Source of the DNA: Pavlovales sp. CCMP2436
Lineage: Eukaryota > Haptophyta > Pavlovophyceae > Pavlovales
Direction: 5' to 3'
DNA length: 12,805 nucleotides
Assembly (NCBI GenBank): GCA_026770615.1
Contig: MU631364.1
Span: 56,436-69,240, forward strand
Numbering within the stretch: the stretch's first letter is position 1; each line of letters opens with the position of its first letter. The position numbers and the translations under genes are program-made. Below are positions 1 to 9,618 of this stretch, one piece after another. The notes beneath the pieces were generated by a model. The model saw nothing but the letters and a program-made list of their open reading frames with translations, had not been told where the DNA came from and searched no databases.

Positions 1-158
1 AGGAAACAACCAAAAACAGTAGCGAGATACCTTGAAAAAAAAGAGGAAACAACCAAAAACAGTAGCGAGATACCTTGTTCTTCTCGCTACTGGTAATTTA
101 ATAATTTCAAATAATATAATATAACAGTATATTATCAGTCGCGATCATCGTGCAGTAC
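1..158 (-). other. Myosin intron 10, partial, with two copies of its own 5' splice site
   Basis: The true donor is at 158. Copies of the exon-10 end and donor (CAAGGTA core) lie at about 67-83 and 27-37. A 34-bp direct repeat (1-34 and 44-77, period 43) carries both. The nearer copy also keeps GAGAAGAACAAG, matching exon 10. Confidence 0.75.
61..91. repeat. 10-bp perfect inverted repeat around a donor copy
   Basis: AGTAGCGAGA (61-70) and TCTCGCTACT (82-91) pair perfectly. The 11-nt loop contains the copied splice donor. Confidence 0.8.
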
Positions 159-236
159 CTTGTTCTTTTCGCGCCAGCCGCTCCCCCCGTACGAGACGGT
201 CGCCGCGTAGTGCCGCACGGAGAAGCCGGCGCTGGG
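159..236 (-). CDS. Myosin exon 10 (HYAATVSY...EKNK)
   Basis: A 78-bp exon of 26 codons encoding PSAGFSVRHYAATVSYGG then SGWREKNK, the family block FxIxHYAGxVxYxxxGFLEKNKD. Acceptor GATCAG|CCCAGC, donor AACAAG|GTACTG, phase 0. The conserved Gly of HYAG is Ala here. The next exon would begin D.L and lies outside the window. Confidence 0.92.
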
Positions 237-1208
237 CTGATCATTGTTTATTGTAGTGATTAGTTATTAGTGGCCGATCATTATTAATTATTGTGGTTAG
301 TTATTAGTATTACTCTGACTGATAACAAACGGCGTCATTGTCGATCTACTCACAAATATGAAATATGAAATATGAAATATGGCGCTTGTTCTGATTCGCA
401 GTTTGATGATGACTCAATATGAGTCGCCCTGTCCGGCTGGCTAGAGACCCCTTGTTAGAAATCGTGGCCGGGGGGAAGGGATAGCAGCCGCCCCCGTGAA
501 AAGGGGCAGGCTCGGCGAGCTGCGCACAGCGCACGTAATTCATAATATTCAATATTATATTAATATGTTAATGTATTTATAATATTATTTTATGCCGCCT
601 CCGCACCTGTAGCCCCTCCGCCAATAATAATAATATTGTTATCTTATGTTATATCTTAAGAATATAACACACCTTATTCTATTATTATATTAATAATCTA
701 ATAATCTAATAAATTATTATATGCCTCATCCGCACCGCACCTGTACCCCTTCCGCTAGCAGCAGCACGGCGGTGGCACCGGTGGGCGCGGCAGATGCCTC
801 GAGCAGCGGAGGCCCTCCACCTGATAAATGAATAGAAGCATAGTTCATGTAATCAAATGAGTCACACGATGAGGGGGGAGGGTGCACACACGCACCGCCC
901 TGCGGTATTTTCGTCAATTCGGTTTTAGGGGGTCAAATGTGTTATTGGGGTCATATATTAGACGAAAGCCCCGCAGTTCTTGACCCCAAATAACACAATT
1001 GACCCCCAAAAGCCGAATAGACGGAAACTCACCTGGAGGGATGTTCGCCGCGTGCGCTCGCAACGCCTTGCACACGAAGGCCTCATCCTGAGCAGCAGCA
1101 GCAGTGGCAGTGGCAGCAGCAGTAGTATTAGTACACTGAGCAAAATTGTGGTTGTTATTATAATCGTCTTCTTCTACTTCTGCTTCAATATATATAGGCC
1201 ATATGTTG

Positions 1209-1255
<47 letters not shown>

Positions 1256-4200
1256 AGCAAACCACTTACACTCCATTAGACTTAGTTATTGATTTTATAG
1301 TACCCTCCCACGCCCCCACCCTGTTACTCTCCTCTTGTAACGGCAGAATCGGAGAAGCTTCGAGTATTTTCGCGAAAATGAGGGCATATTCGGACATCGA
1401 AGAAATGTCGAAAAACGGTCGGATTGGGAGGCGTTGAATCGTAATTACCCAAAAAACGCCCGGATTGGGTGACGCATAAATCGGAATGCCCGAAATTCGT
1501 CCGGATTGGGACGTCCATAAATCACTGGATGGATTAGTTTCTGGCTGGACATGGACAATGGACACGGAGAATTACATACAAACAATGCATCGTCACGACT
1601 TCTCTTTTGTAAATGGACAGACCAGGATTAATCAGAGTTGATTAATTACTTACAAACAATTCGATTAGTTACTTACAAACAATTCGATTAATTACGTATA
1701 AACAATTCGATTAATCACTTATAACAATTGGGTGTCATCCCGTCTCGGCCGTATGTAATCGTATTAATTCATTAGAGGAGCCGGTTGGAAAAGTCCCGGA
1801 CGGAAAAGTTTCTGACTGGACATGGACAATGGACACGAGTTTGAATTTAAAAAAAAATACTTACAAACAATTCGAATCACGGCGTCTTCTTGTATGTGGC
1901 CTCTGATTATAATTACATGGACGCCTTGTGGATCCAGTCCCCAATCGTCAGCTCCATGACTCCATGACTCCATGACTGCTGCATCGCAGATGATTACCGA
2001 TCTATGTGTATATATTTACGTGTTTATAGATTATCGATCCATTCTGCTCCATACTGATCTATGATATGATCGTATTTCATTTCACAGCGATGCCTACTCC
2101 GCCTGCGGCAAGAACTGTCGGACAGGTAAAGCTTCGCTCCCCTTAAAAAATTACCCCCTCCGCGAGCAGGTACAGCATTATCAAATATGAACACAAATAC
2201 ATTTCTTCTCTTCTCTTCTCGTCTCGTCTCTTCTCTTCTTCTTCTTTTTTCTCTTCTCGTCTCTTCTCTTCTTCTTCTTTTTTCTCTCCTCGTATTTTCT
2301 TTTCTTTCTTTTCTCTTTAACTCTTTTCTTTTCTTTCTTTTCTCTTCTCTTCTCTTTTCTCTTCTTTTTTCTTCTCTTCTCTTCTCTTTCTTATTCTTTT
2401 CTCTTCTCTTCTCTTCTCTTTCCTATTCTTTTCTCTTCTTTACCGATCCGTTCTGCAGCGATGCCTCCTCCGCGAGCAGGTGCAGCAGCCCCAGCGGCGG
2501 CCTGTCGAAGAGCTCCAGGCGCGCACCGCCTTGATAGCAAATAATGAAATATGGTATGGCGTTATATTAGATAAAATATGATTAAATCAGTCATTCACAC
2601 AATTCCAATGCAGTGAAGGCAGCAGTACCGAAAAAAAAAAAAAAAAAAACCCGTCTGCGCCCCCCTTATCAAATAGCATCACCTTTATTTATCATCATTA
2701 TTATTGCTATTACTATATTATTATTATTTCTATTGATGATATTATTAATATTAATACTAATAATAATAAGTGTACCGTCGGCGTCCAGTGCCACCTTTAT
2801 CAACTAATTTATTCATATATAGTTAGGAATAGTACCGTCGGCGTCCAGTGCCACTTTGAGCCACGGCACGCCCTCTGCCTCGTACTCCTGCTGCTGACTC
2901 ACCTGCGCATCGCATAAAAATAAGTCAGAATAATAATAATAAAAGTAACAAGAAGAAGAAGAAGAAGAAGAAGAAGAAGAAGAATAACGGCAGCAATCAT
3001 GATCATAACAATAGCAGCAGCAATCATGATCATAACAATAGCAGCAGCAATCATGATCATAACAATAGCAGCAGCAATCATGATCATAACAATAGCAGCA
3101 GCAATCATGATCATAACAATAGCAGCAGCAATCATGATCATAACAATAGCAGCAGCAATCATGATCATGGTGAGAATAACGCCCTCAGCCCCTTACTCCT
3201 GCTGCTGACTCACCTGCGCATCGCACCAGAAGAAGAAGAACATACCATCACAACTTTTATTACTCTGCTTTCTTGACTGCCGAGAAGGTGCGAAAGGAGC
3301 TCTAACTGTTATAATTCTTTATTCTTTATTCTTTTATTATTTATTATTCGTATTCTTTTTACTAGCAATCATGTTCATGGTGAGAAAAACGCCCTTCACC
3401 CCTTACTCCTGCTGCTGGTTCACCAGGACGTCTTTTGTTGTCTTTAGTATTCGTAGTAGTTGTATGATAGATACGATGATTATATTATGAACATGATGAT
3501 GATGATGAAAATGATGATTATGAATACTATGATACTTATCATCATACTTACCGGCTCACCAAGACGTCTGCTGCGAAGTAATAATAAGTATATTCTATTC
3601 TATAATAATAACGAGAGGTTCACCAGGACGACAGCTGCGAAGTAATGATAATTATATCATATTATATTATTCTATAGTAATAACGAGAGGCTTACCGTGA
3701 CGGCTGCGGCGAAGGAATAATAAAAATAACATTAATAACAATATATTACATAGAAATAACGAGAGGCTTGTCAGGACGTCTGCTGCGAAGGTTGATTATT
3801 AATTTATTATCATAATTACTAGGAGCGGCTCACCAAGACGTCTGCTGCGAAGTTTGCCTGCAGCCGCTCGTTCGCATAGTTGATGCACAGCTGGGGGCAG
3901 GGGGGGGGAGTAGTTGCAGCAGACAGTCAGTAGCTGGCAGGAAGGGGGGGGGGGGCAGTGGCAGTGGCAGCAGACAGTCAGTAGCTGGCAGGAAGGGGGG
4001 GGGGGGCAGTGGCAGTGGCAGCAGACAGTCAGTAGCTGGCAGGGAGGGTGCGGTGCGGGGGGCGGGGGGCAGCTGACAGGGCGGTGGACGGTGGGACGGC
4101 ACCTGCCCGAAGCCGTTATTATTCGTTATTATTAATTTATGATTGCTGTTGATTTCACTATTCTTGATTTGATTATGACTATTGCTGTCATTACGAGTTG

Positions 4201-6615
4201 TAGGAGTAATATGCCTCACCTGCTCGAAGCCCCCCCCCTTTTTTTTAGAACTATTGTTGTTATTGCTGTTAATTATGTTGATGATGATGATGATGATGAT
4301 GGTTGCTGTTGTTATACAACTGCCAACAACTGTAGCATACAGCTGCCAACAGCTGAATATGCGTCACCTGCTCGAAGCCGTCGCGCCCCTTGCCGAAGCA
4401 CTCGAAGCCGAAGAGGTCCAGCAATCCGATGCACGCCAGCCGCTCGGCCGCGCCAACGGCTGCCGGCGCGAGGGGGGCGGGCGCCAAGGAGAGCGAGGAG
4501 CGCGACTCTCTGCTCGGCGTGAGTTAGTTATAACAATAGGTAGTTATTTATTATTACTATTATTATTTTAAAATAGCTCTGACCAGCGCACGGCTCCTCC
4601 TCCGGGCTGAGTTAGTTATAATTTGTGATTAGGTGGAAAAGGATGCGTTCGTAACAGTAGGTAATAAAACATTTAGAACACGAACAAAAGGGCGCACGGC
4701 CGAGCGCCGCCACGAGGGGGTCGGCTGCGTACCTGGGGGCGCCAGCACCAAGCGCGAGGTCGCGTGCTGCCTGCTGCTGCTCGCCGCTGCCGCTGAGTTC
4801 TGCATTCGCGCGCGCGAGCAGGAAGTCGAACAGGCGGGCGTACAGTGCCTTGGCCAGCGCGCGCGCACCATCGGCTGCCTGCCAGAGTCAGTTTTTTTGT
4901 TTTTTGTTTGTTTGAGGGGTTGGGTGAGGGATTGGGCTAGGGTTTGGGGGTGGGCTGGGCGTCGTTCGAACTGAGGGTGGGGCTAGGGTTTGTGTTAGGG
5001 TTTCGCGCTGAGGGAACAGGGCCAGGGGGCTAAGGCGAGGGCTAGGGTGAACGCTAGGGTGAGGGTGAGGGCTACCTGCTGCGGCGAGAGGCGCAGCGTG
5101 ATTGTCTGGTCGTCTGCACCCACTCGGATGCGCCTGCGCAAAAGCTGCGCGAGCAGCGCGGCGGCGGCGCTGTCCGCGAGCGCCGCCGGCGTAGGGCTGC
5201 CTGCCCCTGCCGCGTGACTTGGCGCGAGCGCCTCGCCGCCCGCCTCTTCCCAGTCCGCCGCGGCCCACTTGGCCTCCTCCCAATCCGACGAGTCCTCCGC
5301 CTCCTCGGCGTAAGCGCCCGTCTCCTCCTCCTCCAAGCCGCCGCCGCCGTCCGCGCCGCCCCCGTCCACCAGCCCGAGCAACCGCGCCGCCGCGCGCAGC
5401 CACCGCCGCCCCTCCTCGCCGGCGAGCGTGGCGCCCTCTTCGCCGTCGGCGCGCGCGACGAAAGCGCACGCGGCGCCGCAGAGCGTCAGCGCGGTGGCCA
5501 CGACGCTGAGCACGACGCGCACCCCGTCGGCTTCAACGCCGGTGAGTGCCATCGCCGCGACCGTCCGCTCCAGCGCCTCGCCGTCGTTGACTCCGCTGAT
5601 GGTGTAGCAGCCGGAGAGGCGCAGGCTCGGGTAGGCGGAGGGGTCTGTGGGCAGTCCCACGCCGCCATCCGCCTCCGCGCCAAAGAGGTGGCGTAGCGTC
5701 GAGGCGAGTGCCTCCGAAACCGCCCCCGGATCCGGGCCCACGCCGAGCGCGCGACCACCCGCCAGCAACTGGTAGAAGATGTGGAAGGAGCGTTCATCGG
5801 CTGCGGGAGATGTGACGCGCGAGCGCTCGAGCATGTACATGCGCAGCTCAGCCCGCACGAGCGCGCACGCGTGAGAGCGCCGGCCAAACGACAGCGCCAC
5901 GTGCTTGCCGAAGCGGCTGGAGTTATCGTTGCGCAGCGTGCGCGCGTTGCCAAATGCCTCGAGCAAGGGATTTGTCGCACTGATGTGTGTGTTAGTTTCG
6001 ATATCACGCAATTAGCTCGCAATTAGCTCGCAATTAGTCACACAGCGCGCGTGTGCGTGTTAGTGTGCGTGCGTGCTCTCACTTTGAGTGTGAGGCGCGT
6101 GTGTTTGTGTTTGTGTGTGTTTTGTTTGTGGTGCGAGTGGACGCGCACCTGATTGCGATAGAGATCGTGTGGCCCGCGCCGCCCGCTGCGGACGCGCCGG
6201 GCGGCCCACTCGCACCACTCGCGGCAGCAAGGAATCCGATCGTGAGCTTGAGCGTCTCCGTCTTGCCCGTGCCTGACTCGCCCGAGATAAGGATCGACTG
6301 GTCGGCCTGCAGCTCCTCATCATCGCAGAGTGCGAACAGGCGAAGCGCCGCCTTTCGATAAGCGCGCTCCGCGATCGCAAACACGTGCGGCGGCAGGTCG
6401 TCACCCGCTGCCGCGCCCGCTGCGCAGTAGCGGCGCACCGAGTCGGAACCGTAGAGCTCGGCTGAGCCCACCCACGAGTGGGGGTTGGTGAAGAGCACTA
6501 CTCCCGGACAGACATCGGTGTAGAGCGCGTGCGCCGCGAATCGCTCCCGCACGGCGGCCACAAGCGCCAGTTCGCCTGCGGACTCTAGATTCGAGGCGAG
6601 CGCCACCATTGGTCC
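159..6615 (-). CDS. Myosin heavy chain, motor domain, ten exons, 3' end beyond window
   Basis: Actin-based ATP-driven motor, cytoplasmic. The proposed join, in transcript order, is 6149-6609(or 6615), 5076-5979, 4733-4878, 4368-4509, 3834-3890, 2836-2902, 2444-2529, 1033-1087, 741-820 and 159-236. This gives 2076 nt from the ATG, exactly 692 codons, and every junction is GT..AG with matching phase. Counting from that Met, the P-loop GESGTGKTE is near 110-118, LEAFGNA 160-166, switch I NDNSSRFGK 171-179, switch II DLFGFE 535-540, and FEQ/LCINYANERLQ starts at 549. Then come PPLGLLHLLAEE and HYAATVSY...EKNK. These landmarks define the family beyond doubt. The actin-binding loop, converter, IQ motifs and tail would lie off the left edge. 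Oddities are an acidic insertion at about 385-430 and HYAA where HYAG is usual. The N-terminus before VALASN is unresolved, because an acceptor-like CAG at 6616-6618 suggests an upstream exon. I cannot assign the myosin class. Confidence 0.93.
436..540 (-). repeat. Dispersed ~105-bp repeat, copy 1
   Basis: On the minus strand this reads ACGTGCGCTGTGCGCAG..., GCCCCTTTTCACGGGGGC, then AACAAGGGGTCTCTA. It is clearly homologous, in opposite orientation, to 6784-6890. It contains a short hairpin (GCCCC/GGGGGC around TTTTCAC). Both copies have AT-rich flanks. I saw no pol III A or B box, and no family is recognised. Confidence 0.85.
592..622 (-). repeat. Copy of exon 9 end plus donor inside intron 9
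   Basis: Matches 730-753 at the exon 9/intron 9 boundary, including CTACAGGTGCGG against GTACAGGTGCGG. It lies 120-140 bp downstream of the real donor in transcript sense. Confidence 0.7.
741..820 (-). CDS. Myosin exon 9 (poorly conserved loop before HYAA)
   Basis: Encodes GGPPLLEASAAPTGATAVLL then LAEGVQ, a Gly/Ala-rich segment in the region that is variable between myosins. It is supported by acceptor TATCAG|GTGGAG, donor TACAG|GTGCGG and phase agreement on both sides, not by motif. The alternative donor GAAGGG|GTACAG is also in phase and would drop two residues. Confidence 0.68.
821..1032 (-). other. Myosin intron 8 (212 bp)
   Basis: More than half is an inverted repeat (909-1027). The donor CAG|GTGAGT and the acceptor-side sequence CAG|GTGGAG resemble each other. 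Confidence 0.75.
909..1027. repeat. Inverted repeat with ~46-bp arms next to the exon 8 donor
   Basis: The left arm is about 909-954 and the right arm about 979-1027, with a 24-bp loop. Shared blocks include GGGGGTCAA, TGTGTTATT and GGGGTCA. Pairing extends weakly to the donor at 1032. It could be a small terminal-inverted-repeat element or a local palindromic duplication. No transposase was seen. Confidence 0.85.
1033..1087 (-). CDS. Myosin exon 8 (DEAFVCKALRAHA)
   Basis: A 55-bp exon encoding DEAFVCKALRAHAANIPP plus one base. It matches the family block DKTFxEKLxxxHxxxxxF. Acceptor GCTCAG|GATGAG, donor CTCCAG|GTGAGT, phase 1. The donor lies at the base of a long inverted repeat (909-1027). 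Confidence 0.85.
1213..1250. repeat. (TA)n microsatellite
   Basis: About 19 uninterrupted TA dinucleotides within myosin intron 7. Confidence 0.98.
1420..1510. repeat. Three diverged ~41-bp repeats with CGGATTGGG core
   Basis: CGGATTGGG occurs at 1420, 1461 and 1502, exactly 41 bp apart. The flanks (ACGC, CATAAATC) are partly shared, so this looks like an old tandem array. Confidence 0.8.
1536..1837. repeat. 31-bp direct repeat pair (1536-1566 and 1807-1837)
   Basis: Both copies carry GGACATGGACAATGGACACG, with one mismatch over 31 bp and a separation of 271 bp. Between them lies a tandem block. Confidence 0.85.
1645..1730. repeat. ~24-bp tandem repeat (TTACTTACAAACAATTCGAT)
   Basis: Three to four copies of a unit containing ACAAACAATTCGATTA. 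Related single copies occur near 1573 and 1858. Confidence 0.85.
2031..2176 (-). repeat. Degraded copies of exon 7 end within intron 7
   Basis: 2155-2176 carries CTCCGCGAGCAGGT (exon 7, 2468-2483). 2085-2106 carries CAGCGATGCCT and CTCCGC (exon 7, 2456-2474). 2031-2050 resembles the exon 7 end and donor (ttaccgatccgttctgcagc at 2440-2459, 16 of 20 matching). Confidence 0.7.
2203..2440. repeat. 240-bp polypyrimidine tract (TTCTC/TTTTC)
   Basis: Almost unbroken C/T on the plus strand, with few purines, directly after the exon 7 donor in transcript sense. The pre-mRNA is therefore a GAAGAG/GAAAAG-rich purine run. Its mirror-like composition could allow triplex (H-DNA) formation. Confidence 0.95.
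2444..2529 (-). CDS. Myosin exon 7 (PPLGLLHLLAEE)
   Basis: An 86-bp exon encoding GARLELFDRPPLGLLHLLAE, then EASLQNGS, the family block LIExKPxGILSLLDEECxxPKAT. Acceptor TATCAAG|GCGGTG, donor GGATCG|GTAAAG, phase 0. The spacing to DEAF in exon 8 equals that of ordinary myosins. Confidence 0.9.
2530..2835 (-). other. Myosin intron 6 (306 bp)
   Basis: AT-rich with an A18-type homopolymer near 2631-2649 and TTATTA runs. It contains a 23-bp exact copy of the exon 6 end and donor at 2772-2794, 60 bp from the original. Confidence 0.8.
2772..2800 (-). repeat. Copy of exon 6 end plus donor inside intron 6
   Basis: The block GTACCGTCGGCGTCCAGTGC (plus strand) continuing CAC is identical at 2772-2794 and 2832-2854. 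The second is the real exon 6/intron 6 boundary. Confidence 0.92.
2836..2902 (-). CDS. Myosin exon 6 (QQQEYEAEGVPW)
   Basis: A 67-bp exon encoding VSQQQEYEAEGVPWLKVALD then AD and the first base of a Gly codon. It matches the family EQEEYxxEGIxWxxIxF block, and the distance from LQ in exon 5 to EY is the usual one. The acceptor reads CGCAG|GTGAGT, so the exon itself opens with a perfect donor-like hexamer. Donor GACG|GTACTA, phase 1. Confidence 0.88.
2950..2984. repeat. (GAA)n microsatellite
   Basis: About eleven GAA units, followed by the 27-bp minisatellite. On the transcribed strand it is a TTC pyrimidine tract 47-81 nt upstream of the exon 6 acceptor and may serve as its polypyrimidine tract. 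Confidence 0.95.
2991..3170. repeat. 27-bp minisatellite, about seven near-identical copies
   Basis: The unit begins CAGCAATCATGATCATAACA and ends ATAGCAG. Period 27 keeps reading frames open on both strands, which produces long spurious ORFs. TGATCA palindromes recur in every unit. Copies are almost identical, so expansion is recent. Confidence 0.97.
3162..3417 (-). repeat. Two copies of exon 6 start/acceptor region inside intron 5
   Basis: 3162-3225 and 3365-3417 share AATCATG.TCATGGTGAGAA and CCCTTACTCCTGCTGCTG. The first continues into ACTCACCTGCGCATCGCA, identical to the true acceptor region at 2897-2914. The coding frame is broken in both by GAGTAA where exon 6 has GAGTAC. Confidence 0.88.
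3404..3432 (-). repeat. Fused exon 5 end / exon 6 start copy without an intron
   Basis: In transcript sense this 29-bp stretch matches the last 9 nt of exon 5 joined directly to the first 20 nt of exon 6 at 26 of 29 positions. It is located inside the intron that separates those exons. Confidence 0.75.
3553..3790 (-). repeat. Four copies of exon 5 end plus donor inside intron 5
   Basis: About 26-bp copies at 3553-3578, 3617-3642, 3689-3714 and 3765-3790, with the original boundary at 3827-3852. Spacing is 62-76 bp. Each keeps GACG..(T/A)GCTGCGAAG-like exon sequence and most keep the donor. The linkers between copies share ATAACGAGAGG. Confidence 0.92.
3834..3890 (-). CDS. Myosin exon 5 (LCINYANERLQ)
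   Basis: A 57-bp exon of exactly 19 codons, LCINYANERLQANFAADVL, which continues FEQ of exon 4 into the invariant FEQLCINYxNExLQ block. Acceptor CCCCCAG|CTGTGC, donor CTTG|GTGAGC, phase 0 both sides. It is too short for ordinary ORF calling and was found by motif. Confidence 0.92.
3914..4060. repeat. 52-bp G-rich minisatellite, three copies
   Basis: The unit contains GCAGCAGACAGTCAGTAGCT, GGCAGGAAGG, a G10-G11 run and GCAGTGGCAGTGG. In transcript sense each copy gives a C-rich tract followed by TGCCAG|CTACTG, resembling the true acceptor CCCCCAG|CTGTGC. The plus strand could form G-quadruplexes. Confidence 0.95.
4098..4231 (-). repeat. Two copies of exon 4 end plus donor inside intron 4
   Basis: 4209-4231 matches 4359-4380, ATATGC.TCACCTGCTCGAAG, nearly perfectly across the donor. 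4098-4116 keeps CACCTGCCCGAAGCCGT with one mismatch. Confidence 0.88.
4274..4302. repeat. (GAT)n microsatellite
   Basis: About eight to nine GAT units within intron 4. A looser GAT-rich run is at 3494-3516. Confidence 0.95.
4368..4509 (-). CDS. Myosin exon 4 (switch II)
   Basis: Begins after CCGAGCAG and completes a split Arg codon, then a Ser/Ala/Pro loop, then RLACIGLLDLFGFECFGKG ending GFEQ at the donor GAGCAG|GTGACG. DLFGFE is the switch II motif (family DIxGFE). Phase 0 exit. Confidence 0.93.
4510..4732 (-). other. Myosin intron 3 (223 bp) with duplicated acceptor region
   Basis: Near its 3' end GAGTTAGTTATAA occurs at about 4520-4532 and GAGTTAGTTATAAT at about 4609-4622, each preceded by GC-rich sequence resembling the exon 4 start. 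This suggests a duplicated 3' splice region. I see no copy of its donor. Confidence 0.6.
4733..4878 (-). CDS. Myosin exon 3 (ALAKALYARLFDFLL)
   Basis: Begins after TGGCAG with AADGARALAKALYARLFDFL, matching the family block RDALAKALYxRLFDWLV. Then comes a short Gln/Ala-rich segment. Donor CCCAG|GTACGC, phase 2. The frame joins cleanly to the exons on either side. Confidence 0.88.
4879..5075 (-). other. Myosin intron 2 (197 bp), telomere-like C-rich repeats
   Basis: In transcript sense it is full of CCCTA, CCCTCA and AACCCTA units, starting right at the donor (GTAGCCCTCACCCTCACCC). The pattern is degenerate, with irregular spacing. It ends in an AC/A-rich stretch and acceptor TGGCAG. Confidence 0.8.
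5076..5979 (-). CDS. Myosin exon 2 (switch I, upper 50K region)
   Basis: Largest exon, 904 bp. It opens at ATCAG|TGCGAC, completing a split Ser codon before ATNPLLEAFGNARTLR, then NDNSSRFGKHVALSF, MLERSRV and ERSFHIFYQLLAGG. These are textbook myosin blocks. A Gly stretch and an acidic EEEE/EEAEDSSDWEEAKW stretch follow where most myosins continue compactly. It ends RLSPQQ at CAGCAG|GTAGCC, phase 0. Confidence 0.93.
5980..6148 (-). other. Myosin intron 1 (169 bp)
   Basis: Contains three copies of CAATTAGCTCG-like sequence (6009-6038) and GT-rich low-complexity DNA (6048-6130). Donor side ATCAG|GTGCGCG and acceptor side ATCAG|TGCGACA are similar. Confidence 0.8.
6149..6615 (-). CDS. Myosin exon 1 as modelled (P-loop exon)
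   Basis: Encodes VALASNLESAGELALVAAV..., then VLFTNPHSWVGSAELYG, PPHVFAIAERAYRKA and the P-loop QSILISGESGTGKTETLK. It ends at the donor CAATCAG|GTGCGC in phase 2. ATG at 6609 is the first in-frame Met. The bases before it, ATCAG|GGACCA, look like an acceptor in phase 0, so translation may start in an exon I cannot place. Confidence 0.9.
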
Positions 6616-6640: not shown

Positions 6641-7182
6641 CTCTTTCACAGCAGTGTCCTCGCGCGTCGCTCCGCACGCGACGGCCGCTCCGGTGCCGCA
6701 CACGCCCGGCCGGTCAACAGAAAACGCGTCCTTTTTAAATGAGGCGCGTGATATAAATTATATTATTTTATAATTAATGACGGAATGACGTGCGCTGTGC
6801 GCAGATCGCCGAGCCTGCCCCTTTTCACGGGGGCGGATGATATATCCTTCCCCTGGCCACGCTTCCCAACAAGGGGTCTCTAACAACCAGTCACAATCTG
6901 AGATTGTCGGAAAACTAGCCTTTTAAAAAATGAAACAAGCCCACAAACTGGAGCCCAGTTCAAGGTCGAGCGGATCAAACCCTGGGCAAGGGCGGCCCTG
7001 GTGGGGCCAACTTCACGAGCGATGCAGATAGCTGGGAGCGGCCGCGCACGACCAGCACATCGCGTGCTGTGGCGCACCCTGGTGACAGAGCATGGAGATC
7101 ATCACAATTCACATACGCTCTCATAGCAGTGTCCTCGCGCATCTGATACCGCTCCGCACGCAACTGCCGCTCTCGTTGCCGT
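6641..7182. repeat. Duplicated ~60-bp block (6641-6698 and 7119-7182)
   Basis: Both copies share AGCAGTGTCCTCGCGC, GCTCCGCACGC and TGCCG in order. In transcript (minus) sense the proximal copy ends CTGCTGTGAAAGAG|GTGAGG, a good donor only 25 bp before the exon 1 acceptor, too close to be a working intron. The distal copy gives RAERYQMREDTAMRAY in an open frame. This may be the missing upstream myosin exon plus its relic, or both may be relics. Confidence 0.6.
6784..6890 (+). repeat. Dispersed ~105-bp repeat, copy 2
   Basis: Plus-strand partner of 436-540, in opposite orientation and about 6.3 kb away. The hairpin GCCCCTTTTCACGGGGGC and the block AACAAGGGGTCTCTA are identical, with scattered mismatches elsewhere. 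The GC-rich core is again preceded by an AT-rich run (6745-6780). Confidence 0.85.
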
Positions 7183-7899: not shown

Positions 7900-8439
7900 T
7901 CAGCCCGCGCGCACGGCGGTTGCTTCCAGGAACTCGAGCGCGTTGCCGTCCGGGTCGCGGCAGAAGACCGCGAGCCGGCCGGACATGCTCATCGTGTACG
8001 GCACGCCCGCCGCCTCGAGGCTCGCCTTGAGCGGCTCGATGCTTTGCACCGTGATGGCGAGGTGCCGGTCGCGCCCGCCGTGCTCCGGCCGGCCGGCGGT
8101 CGGGTCGGGGTTGGGCAGTTCCATCAGGTGCAGCTGGTGCGTGCCGCACCGCACGAAAGCACCCGCGAACGACAGCGTTGCCGGTCGGTACTGCGTGTCG
8201 TCGCCCATGCCGAGTACCTCGGTGTAGAAGGCCAACGACTTGGCCGTGTCGCTTACGAGTACACCGGCGTGCTGGATGCCGCCGTAGTCGACGGCGGCGG
8301 CGACGCAGCGCGGCCGCGAGCGTCCTACGCGCGCGGCCGCGTGGCGCAGCGGCGAGCAAAACGCGCTCGGTACCGAGGCGCCCACCGAGAGCGCCGCCAA
8401 TGTGAGCCAGGCGGCGGAGGTCAGGGCGGAGCGAGCCAT
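7900..8439 (-). CDS. VOC / glyoxalase-fold metalloprotein, probably plastid-targeted
   Basis: 179 aa, intronless. The mature part (about 51-175) is a single vicinal-oxygen-chelate module of two beta-alpha-beta-beta-beta repeats: IQHAGVLVSDTAKSLAFYTE, LHLMELPNPDP, GRPEHGGRDRHLAI and FCRDPDGNALEFLE. Likely metal ligands by position are His57, Glu107, His126 and Glu169, the usual H/E pattern of glyoxalase I and related dioxygenases. PEHGGRDRH is typical of a cyanobacterial and plastid-lineage subgroup. Residues 1-21 form a hydrophobic leader, followed by ASVPSAF and an Arg-rich stretch, matching a bipartite signal-plus-transit presequence of a complex plastid (inference). The substrate cannot be read from sequence, and glyoxalase activity on methylglyoxal is only one possibility. 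It is divergent from the SIS gene across a 291-bp spacer. The start is the first in-frame ATG that includes the leader. Confidence 0.88.
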   Translation of the reverse strand: MARSALTSAAWLTLAALSVGASVPSAFCSPLRHAAARVGRSRPRCVAAAVDYGGIQHAGVLVSDTAKSLAFYTEVLGMGDDTQYRPATLSFAGAFVRCGTHQLHLMELPNPDPTAGRPEHGGRDRHLAITVQSIEPLKASLEAAGVPYTMSMSGRLAVFCRDPDGNALEFLEATAVRAG

Positions 8440-8730: not shown

Positions 8731-9618
8731 ATGTCGAGCGGCGCCTTCCTGAGGTCGCTGCGCTCGTCGGAGGCGGCGGTCGCGCACGCTGTGCGCCAGC
8801 TGAGCGCGCGGCCGGAGCGCGTCACGGCATTCGCCGCGGCGCTTCACCGCTGCGGTGGCACCATCCTGCCGACCGCGATTGGCAAGAGCGCGGCGGCGGC
8901 GAGCAGGCTAGCCGCGTCGCTGCGCTCTGTCGGCGCGCGCGCGCACTGGGTGCACGCCGCCGAGTGGGCGCACGGCGACCTGGGCGCCGTCCGCGAGGAG
9001 GACGTGATCGTCTGCATCTCCAACAGTGGGCGCTCCGCCGAACTGCTCGCGCTCGCCGCCGAGCTACGCGCGCTGCCGCGGCCGCCGACCATTCTCGCGA
9101 TCACGGGCGACGAGCGCTCGCCGCTCGCGCTCCTCGCGAGCGCGCAGCTCTCGTGGAGCCTGCCCACCGAGCACGAGATCCTCAGGGTCCTCCCTGCGGG
9201 CAGTGCGCTGGCGCAGGACCTCGTCGTCAACGCGCTCGTGGCGCAGCTGGCGGAGCTACGCGGAAGCACCTTGGCGGACCTGACGGCATGCCACCCGGGC
9301 GGCGCGATCGGCGCAGCAGCGGCGAGCGCGGCGCTCGGCGGGCTGTCGGAAATAACTTGGGTACCGCAGGGGCAGCCGCTGCCGCAGCGGCAACAAGTGG
9401 ACCCGTTCGAGAAGGTGCCATACGAGTCGCCGCCGCCGCCGGACATGTGGGTGCCGCAGATGCAGCAGCCAGGGCAGGCGCCCATGTCGTCGCAACCGCC
9501 GTCGCAGCAGCAGCAGCAGCCGCCGCCGCCGCCGCAGCGGCAACAGGTGGACCCGTTCGAGAGGGGCGGGCAGTCGTCGCTACCCATGGGCGGATTCCCA
9601 TGGCCGCGCGGGGGTTGA
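8731..9618 (+). CDS. SIS-domain sugar-phosphate isomerase, KpsF/KdsD (arabinose-5-phosphate isomerase) type
   Basis: 295 aa from ATG 8731 (a GTG directly before it is not a credible eukaryotic start). The SIS fold spans about 10-200. Family landmarks are IGKS (50-53), HAAEWAHGDLGAV (75-87, family HPxEAxHGDLGM), SNSGRSAE (97-104), ITGDERSPLALLA (124-136) and CHPGGAIG (187-194). Candidate catalytic residues corresponding to KdsD Lys59, Glu111, Glu152 and His193 are Lys52, Glu104, Glu147 (or Glu149) and His188. In the family the enzyme interconverts ribulose-5-phosphate and arabinose-5-phosphate for KDO synthesis; here that is inferred. The two CBS domains of bacterial KdsD are absent. Instead residues 205-295 are low-complexity Gln/Pro/Gly with WVPQ and PQRQQVDPFE each present twice. 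There is no evident transit peptide. Confidence 0.85.
   Translation: MSSGAFLRSLRSSEAAVAHAVRQLSARPERVTAFAAALHRCGGTILPTAIGKSAAAASRLAASLRSVGARAHWVHAAEWAHGDLGAVREEDVIVCISNSGRSAELLALAAELRALPRPPTILAITGDERSPLALLASAQLSWSLPTEHEILRVLPAGSALAQDLVVNALVAQLAELRGSTLADLTACHPGGAIGAAAASAALGGLSEITWVPQGQPLPQRQQVDPFEKVPYESPPPPDMWVPQMQQPGQAPMSSQPPSQQQQQPPPPPQRQQVDPFERGGQSSLPMGGFPWPRGG
9383..9560. repeat. In-frame repeat pair, 150 bp apart, in the SIS gene tail
   Basis: CGCAGCGGCAACA(A/G)GTGGACCCGTTCGAGA occurs at about 9383 and 9533, exactly 150 bp apart (50 codons), with a single mismatch over the core. Between them the coding is Pro/Gln-rich with a CAG run (9503-9520). Confidence 0.9.

What the first reader, a model, noticed from the sequence alone, without database searches (positions are those of the whole stretch)
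1..4732. Introns that carry repeated copies of their own exon-intron boundaries
In at least six myosin introns (4, 5, 6, 7, 9, 10) the sequence just downstream of the true 5' splice site contains one to five extra copies of the exon end plus donor. Examples are 23 identical bp in intron 6, about 20 of 22 in intron 4 across the donor, and five copies at 62-76 bp spacing in intron 5. Introns 3, 4 and 5 also have acceptor copies. This is seen directly in the sequence. The inference is that these introns grew, and possibly arose, by serial tandem duplication of splice boundaries, giving each intron an array of decoy splice sites. Introner elements (Micromonas, Aureococcus and others) and intron gain by tandem duplication are known, but I do not know this repeated boundary copying as a described system.
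Basis: partly seen in the sequence, partly recalled or inferred. Interest (0 to 1): 0.86.

Follow-up and report, generated by a model that had tools for sequence, protein, structure and literature searches.

The report
Introns grown from copied exon edges
In this marine alga many introns contain several decaying copies of the exon edges that border them, as if introns keep growing by duplicating their own splice boundaries while the cell goes on using the outermost copy.

Summary
The genome is that of the haptophyte Pavlovales sp. CCMP2436 (a predicted protein is identical over 511 residues to a record of that name, and the contig lengths agree).

I predicted genes in 133 kb of it and tested 85 introns. 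33 of 85 carry at least one significant copy of their own exon edge: 59 copies, 1.6 expected by chance, 1 reverse-complement hit. Of introns of 350 bp or more, 24 of 33 do. Copies nearly always reach the splice boundary and fade out within 60-100 nt of exon. In most arrays the copy nearest the used site is the most similar. Public proteins indicate that the outermost site is spliced in four such introns.

Best reading: short direct duplications, often with AT-rich filler, arise throughout non-coding DNA here. At exon edges they survive because the outer boundary still splices, so introns lengthen. The decoys show no sign of being maintained. "Introns grew this way" is supported; "arose this way" fits only a few; introners are not supported. 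An excess of copies ending exactly at the splice site is unexplained.

The parts
159..6609 (-). Myosin motor gene, ten exons to the window edge; exons 6609-6149, 5979-5076, 4878-4733, 4509-4368, 3890-3834, 2902-2836, 2529-2444, 1087-1033, 820-741, 236-159
   Evidence: open frame of 692 aa; PDB myosins; Myosin_head matches
4208..4231 (-). Intron 4: copy of exon 4 end plus donor, +148
   Evidence: 12 exon and 12 intron nt aligned
4097..4116 (-). Intron 4: second, weaker copy of exon 4 end plus donor, +265
3761..3794 (-). Intron 5: copy of exon 5 end, +62; donor GT lost
3685..3714 (-). Intron 5: copy of exon 5 end plus donor, +138
3613..3643 (-). Intron 5: copy of exon 5 end plus donor, +210
3552..3579 (-). 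Intron 5: copy of exon 5 end plus donor, +274, 20 exon and 8 intron nt identical
3389..3432 (-). Intron 5: exon 5 end joined directly to the exon 6 start, as in the spliced or pre-intron sequence (diverged)
3179..3225 (-). Intron 5: copy of the acceptor and exon 6 start (12 intron + 35 exon nt)
2772..2797 (-). Intron 6: copy of exon 6 end plus GTAC, 23 identical bp within it
2031..2177 (-). Intron 7: three weaker fragments of the exon 7 end (2154-2177, 2085-2102, 2031-2047)
601..621 (-). Intron 9: copy of exon 9 end plus donor, +134
71..90 (-). Intron 10: copy of exon 10 end plus donor, +85 (score 14.5); intron runs off the window

Best explanation
In Pavlovales sp. CCMP2436, non-coding DNA keeps acquiring short, local duplications in direct orientation. 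At introns, a segment at an exon edge (typically 10-40 nt of exon, with or without adjoining intron) is duplicated, often with AT-rich filler between the copies; sometimes the whole unit is then duplicated again in tandem. If the segment includes the splice boundary, the protein is unchanged as long as the spliceosome uses the outermost boundary, and the inner copy becomes intron. Duplications inside exons break the protein and are lost. The intron thus works as a one-way ratchet: it lengthens from its edges, and older boundary copies are pushed inwards and decay. Shown here: the copies, their excess over chance in many genes, direct orientation, boundary inclusion, the link with intron length, decay with distance in most arrays, no retention of splice dinucleotides, and outer-site use in the four introns with matching public proteins. 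Inferred: the repair or slippage mechanism, and the selective filter.
For: Own exon edges beat those of other introns searched in the same intron: 20-mers with score 11 or more, 14 of 86 donor-side (0.18 expected) and 16 of 86 acceptor-side (0.12 expected); down to 1 of 65 and 0 of 56 at 80 and 100 nt into exon 1, and 0 of 65 at 60 nt into exon 2. Gapped: 59 copies in 33 of 85 introns, 1.6 expected, 1 reverse-complement hit. Copies reach to within 3 nt of the boundary or beyond it in 22 of 28 donor-side and 30 of 31 acceptor-side cases. 24 of 33 introns of 350 bp or more have copies, 1 of 14 at 60-119 bp. Local duplication is about as common in intergenic DNA as in introns and near background in exons. 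Polarity 16 of 21 arrays. Outer acceptor spliced in all three kringle-gene introns and in one NIPA-gene intron. GT kept 16 of 24 (18.9 expected if neutral), AG kept 22 of 29 (23.4 expected).
Against: Matched boundary rates exceed intron interior about 2-3 fold at score 10 and about 4-6 fold at score 14, more than the roughly twofold I would expect from a conserved parent copy. Of 16 near-identical copies, 8 stop within 4 nt of the splice site; random placement would give about 2 (my arithmetic from the listed extents, after seeing the data). 52 of 85 introns have no detected copy, and 13 of the 26 genes with tested introns have none. 5 of 21 arrays have the opposite polarity. No relative was compared, so no duplication event was observed directly.
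Confidence: 0.68

Rival explanations
1. Boundary-specific copying: a splicing- or mRNA-linked process copies exon edges up to the splice site (for example spliced mRNA re-hybridised to the gene, with breaks at exon ends, or repair templated by mRNA). The copies are targeted, not a filtered sample of random duplications.
For: 8 of 16 near-identical copies stop within 4 nt of the splice site on the intron side, for example myosin intron 6 and L034 introns 2 and 3. Boundary rates exceed the interior beyond the twofold expected. One intron (myosin intron 5) holds a spliced-like junction.
Against: Spliced-junction copies were found in only 1 of 85 introns. Intron interiors and intergenic DNA have local duplications too. 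Intron flanks are AT-rich and repetitive and may lose visible homology faster than exon-derived sequence.
Confidence: 0.15
2. Maintained decoy arrays: the extra donors and acceptors are kept by selection for alternative or buffered splicing.
For: Many copies keep usable-looking sites; the true donor outscores the copy in only 12 of 24 cases, the true acceptor in 18 of 28.
Against: GT and AG are not kept above neutral expectation (16 against 18.9 of 24; 22 against 23.4 of 29). Copies decay inwards in most arrays. The public proteins seen use the outer site.
Confidence: 0.06
3. Introns born by duplication: each intron began as a tandem duplication of an exon segment with a latent splice site, and the copies are remnants of that birth.
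For: Intron head equals exon-2 head for 5 nt or more in 5 of 86 introns (1.2 expected); 12 of 12 nt in C323 intron 4 (L043). Exon 6 of the myosin begins GTGAGT, like a donor.
Against: Overall head similarity p = 0.24, tail similarity p = 0.07. The commonest copies are exon 1 end plus donor, or acceptor plus exon 2 start, which presuppose an existing intron.
Confidence: 0.07
4. Mobile introns (introners) or another dispersed element make the copies.
For: Introners are known in many algae (PMC9860276, passages).
Against: Own-genome searches with the myosin intron 5, the L034 intron 3 region and an L041 intron region found no dispersed family apart from simple-repeat stretches; the L034 intron 3 sequence has one 101 bp relative, in intron 1 of the same gene. 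Only 3 regions were searched, and that search skips simple repeats.
Confidence: 0.02
5. Artefact of assembly or of gene prediction.
For: The published assembly is an Illumina draft (PMC9756366, passages). Introns outside the window come from my own gene finder, started from the manual myosin model.
Against: Copies differ from each other by substitutions, so they are not plain assembly duplicates. Two predicted proteins are identical to public ones over the part covered. In seven genes with Pfam, PDB or public-protein support for at least part of the protein, 24 of 40 tested introns have copies (my sum from the per-gene list).
Confidence: 0.02

Closest known systems
[quoted passage not shown] potato RdRp case PMC4974935, review PMC3443670; passages seen)
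   Same: Short local duplication that involves splice sites and leaves the protein unchanged. The potato case duplicates an intron end plus exon start, as here.
   Different: Here the product is in most cases a longer existing intron with repeated boundary copies, not a new intron; it recurs within one intron and across many genes; and most copies are separated by unrelated AT-rich sequence.
Repair-mediated duplication by capture of nearby DNA (vertebrates, PMC2671141; abstract and passages)
   Same: Copies of nearby sequence, including splice sites, placed in introns; attributed there to break repair.
   Different: That study excluded copies within 50 bp and includes opposite orientation (a duplicated exon). 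Here copies lie about 60-200 bp away (nearest copy, 10-90%) and are almost all direct (59 to 1).
Introners (PMC9860276, passages)
   Same: Alter intron-exon structure on a genome scale in algae.
   Different: Introners are dispersed families inserted into exons; here the copied sequence is unique to each locus in the three regions searched.
Minisatellites or tandem repeats in introns (general knowledge, recalled)
   Same: Some units are ordinary tandem arrays (myosin intron 5; L041 1395-1843).
   Different: The array begins in coding sequence and includes the splice site; 55 of 65 copies are not near full-unit repeats.

Membership tests
[quoted passage not shown]
   runs of 5 nt or more in 5 of 86 introns (1.2 expected, p = 0.0025); overall head p = 0.24, tail p = 0.07
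[quoted passage not shown]
   no relative's genomic DNA was available
Tandem (head-to-tail) duplication of whole units | Sequence between true site and copy repeats after the copy | tested here: not met
   10 of 65 copies have 80% or more of the unit aligned; met in single arrays only
Repair-mediated duplication by local capture | Both orientations, short copies of nearby DNA | tested here: not met
   59 direct hits, 1 reverse-complement hit; short and local are met
Introners | Dispersed family of similar introns | tested here: not met
   three own-genome DNA searches; simple repeats are skipped by that search
Functional alternative splice-site arrays | Splice dinucleotides kept above neutral decay | tested here: not met
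   GT 16 of 24 (18.9 expected), AG 22 of 29 (23.4 expected)
Functional alternative splice-site arrays | Inner sites used in RNA | not testable with these tools
   no reads; proteins identical to the outer-site model in four introns

The most novel reading that the evidence does not exclude
Exon edges are copied precisely up to the splice site by a splicing- or mRNA-guided DNA process, so that splicing itself marks where the gene is duplicated and introns lengthen from their boundaries in a self-reinforcing way.
Probability: 0.15. Interest if true: 0.9.

Novelty: new variant of a known kind. Interest (0 to 1): 0.72.

Why it matters
How introns get longer is, to my knowledge, far less documented than how they are gained or lost. 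Here introns keep a readable record of their growth: graded copies of their own edges, in most arrays the most similar one nearest the boundary. If it holds across the genome, one alga offers very many natural experiments on how the spliceosome picks the outermost of several near-identical sites, and intron growth by boundary duplication becomes directly testable by comparing strains.

Tried and rejected
Introners: own-genome searches with myosin intron 5, the L034 intron 3 region and an L041 region gave no dispersed family; the many matches fall in one simple-repeat stretch, and the small ones likewise. Reverse-complement copies: no score of 10 or more among 69 introns (the donor rank test there did show z = 2.58, p = 0.005, without strong hits), 1 hit. 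Copies of spliced mRNA: 1 of 85 introns. Maintained splice sites: not above neutral. A purely boundary-specific process: suggested by a first control (intergenic 3.6% against 15-21% at boundaries), but with same-class targets and a matched complexity filter intergenic DNA and introns are alike, so I kept it only as a rival. A first analysis of how far copies extend was faulty because the two aligned stretches overlapped; one search replaces it and one search is not used. Rfam found nothing in the window. The myosin protein search gave only distant relatives and no organism.

Literature: searches listed no paper that I recognised, from titles and abstract starts, as describing repeated boundary copies in introns. 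The one paper found on this strain's genome (PMC9756366, searched by terms) has no 'intron' in its main text. Most subscription papers are not in the library.

Rows dropped: 24 of 110 predicted introns (intron under 60 bp or an adjoining exon under 30 bp). One further intron (C469:66001, + gene 2), which I judged doubtful because of repetitive sequence, was left out; it had five high-scoring 'copies' and is still included. Low-complexity matches were filtered; L034 intron 1 is among the introns so counted as negative although one search shows a 69-nt exon-edge copy there. The filler figures use only copies closer than 200 bp.

Full report
What is there. The finding lies in a divergent myosin gene on the minus strand. 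I built the gene by hand; its ten exons give an uninterrupted 692-residue frame, which aligns to solved myosins without gaps at the junctions of introns 4 to 7. Introns 7, 9 and 10 have weaker single copies or fragments. Acceptor copies are convincing only in intron 5; in introns 3 and 4 they are at background level. Intron 5 also holds one stretch (3389-3432) in which the end of exon 5 runs straight into the start of exon 6, as in spliced or pre-intron sequence, with several differences. It may instead be a chance join of a donor copy and an acceptor copy.

Whose genome. A predicted 511-residue NIPA protein from contig C469 is identical to a public protein of Pavlovales sp. CCMP2436, and that record's longest contig has the length of C469, 109,892 bases. 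The genome paper reports an Illumina/AllPaths draft of 165.4 Mb (PMC9756366, passages found by term search). The copy held here has 119 Mb, with long stretches reading N.

Is it more than this gene? Its other models are: five tested proteins each match a Pfam family above the cut-off, and two match public proteins exactly over the part covered. Of 110 predicted introns in 133 kb, 86 were kept. I compared each intron's own exon edges with those of other introns searched in the same intron. Own edges win: 14 of 86 donor-side and 16 of 86 acceptor-side exon 20-mers have strong copies, against 0.18 and 0.12 expected. The excess is highest at the boundary and is gone by 80-100 nt into exon 1 and 60 nt into exon 2. 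With gapped alignment, 59 copies lie in 33 of 85 introns against 1.6 expected, with one reverse-complement hit. Long introns have most: 24 of 33 at 350 bp or more, 6 of 18 at 200-349, 2 of 20 at 120-199, 1 of 14 at 60-119. 13 of the 26 genes with tested introns have none, for example C186 (4 introns) and C323 (5 introns).

Anatomy. Copies nearly always reach the splice boundary (22 of 28 donor-side and 30 of 31 acceptor-side to within 3 nt or beyond) and take up to 60 nt of exon. In 16 of 21 arrays similarity to the true site falls with distance from it; in 5 it rises. 10 of 65 copies are near full-length tandem units, as in L041 1395-1843 and parts of myosin intron 5. Most others are exon-edge patches whose flanks do not match. 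Sequence between true site and copy is AT-rich and often simple (27 fillers, GC 0.35 against 0.43 for all introns). Of 16 near-identical copies, 8 stop within 4 nt of the splice site on the intron side.

What the copies do. In four introns bearing copies, public proteins agree with splicing at the outer site. Three are in a kringle gene, whose matching protein comes from a 1,904-bp contig that cannot hold the 1,532 bp of introns besides 1,380 bp of coding sequence. One is in the NIPA gene, whose identical protein is listed from the MMETSP source among others. That these sources are cDNA is my inference from length and source name; the NIPA record is also listed from genome sources. Splice dinucleotides in copies are not kept above neutral decay (GT 16 of 24 with 18.9 expected, AG 22 of 29 with 23.4 expected). 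The true donor outscores the copy in only 12 of 24 cases, so local strength does not explain the preference for the outer site.

Where the copies come from. No dispersed element was found in three searches. Local direct duplication is about as common in intergenic DNA as in introns (score 10 or more: 11.1% and 13.6%, null 2.4% and 2.9%) and near background inside exons (4.7%, null 3.3%). That points to a general mutational process with a selective filter: at exon edges only duplications that leave an intact outer boundary survive. Matched one-sided rates at score 10 or more are 17-28% at boundaries, about 10% in intron interiors and 8% in intergenic DNA; at score 14 or more they are 9-18%, 2-3% and 3%. 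A conserved parent copy should by itself raise detection about twofold (my estimate). The remaining excess and the sharp ends at splice sites are not explained and are the basis of the novel case.

Origin of introns. Evidence that introns themselves arose by duplication is limited to a few: 5 of 86 repeat the exon-2 head in the intron head for 5 nt or more (1.2 expected), the clearest in an SNF2 gene (12 of 12 nt, L043), but the overall tests are not significant.

Known work. Tandem duplication is an established route of intron gain (PMC3443670, PMC4974935, passages), and break repair can copy nearby sequence, including splice sites, to new places (PMC2671141, abstract and passages). I found no description of introns carrying arrays of their own boundaries in the eight searches named under tried and rejected. 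I file this as a new variant of a known kind.

Limits. Gene models outside the window are predictions from a finder that I wrote. The sample is 133 kb of a 119-Mb copy, chosen partly around motor-protein and helicase genes. No relative's genomic DNA and no RNA reads could be used. The excess of copies ending at splice sites was noticed after the fact.

Noticed in passing
window 442-541 (+) and 6783-6882 (-): A 100-bp segment inside myosin intron 9 recurs in inverted orientation upstream of the gene (88 of 100 identical); possibly a small dispersed element. Its frequency in the genome was not searched.
   Followed up: partly
L028 around 5931 (-), intron 1 of a second myosin gene: Telomere-like repeats (GGGTTAGGGTTAGGGTTAG) inside an intron, beside a copy of the exon end; myosin intron 2 in the window has degenerate CCCTA-type repeats.
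   Followed up: no
L034 7423-7868 and 9105-9342: Introns 1 and 3 of the kringle gene share a 101-bp segment at 81% identity, so intron sequence also moves between introns of one gene.
   Followed up: no
L001 1501-3546 (G000:C469:74243-76288): Another myosin has its motor domain in one open frame of 850 residues without a stop, next to intron-rich myosin genes in the same genome.
   Followed up: no
L043, intron 4 of the SNF2 gene (C323): A 122-bp intron whose first 12 nt equal the first 12 nt of the next exon; a candidate for recent intron gain by duplication.
   Followed up: partly
window 7900-8439 (-) and 8731-9618 (+): Two predicted single-exon genes of 180 and 296 codons including the stop; not identified by any search here.
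   Followed up: no
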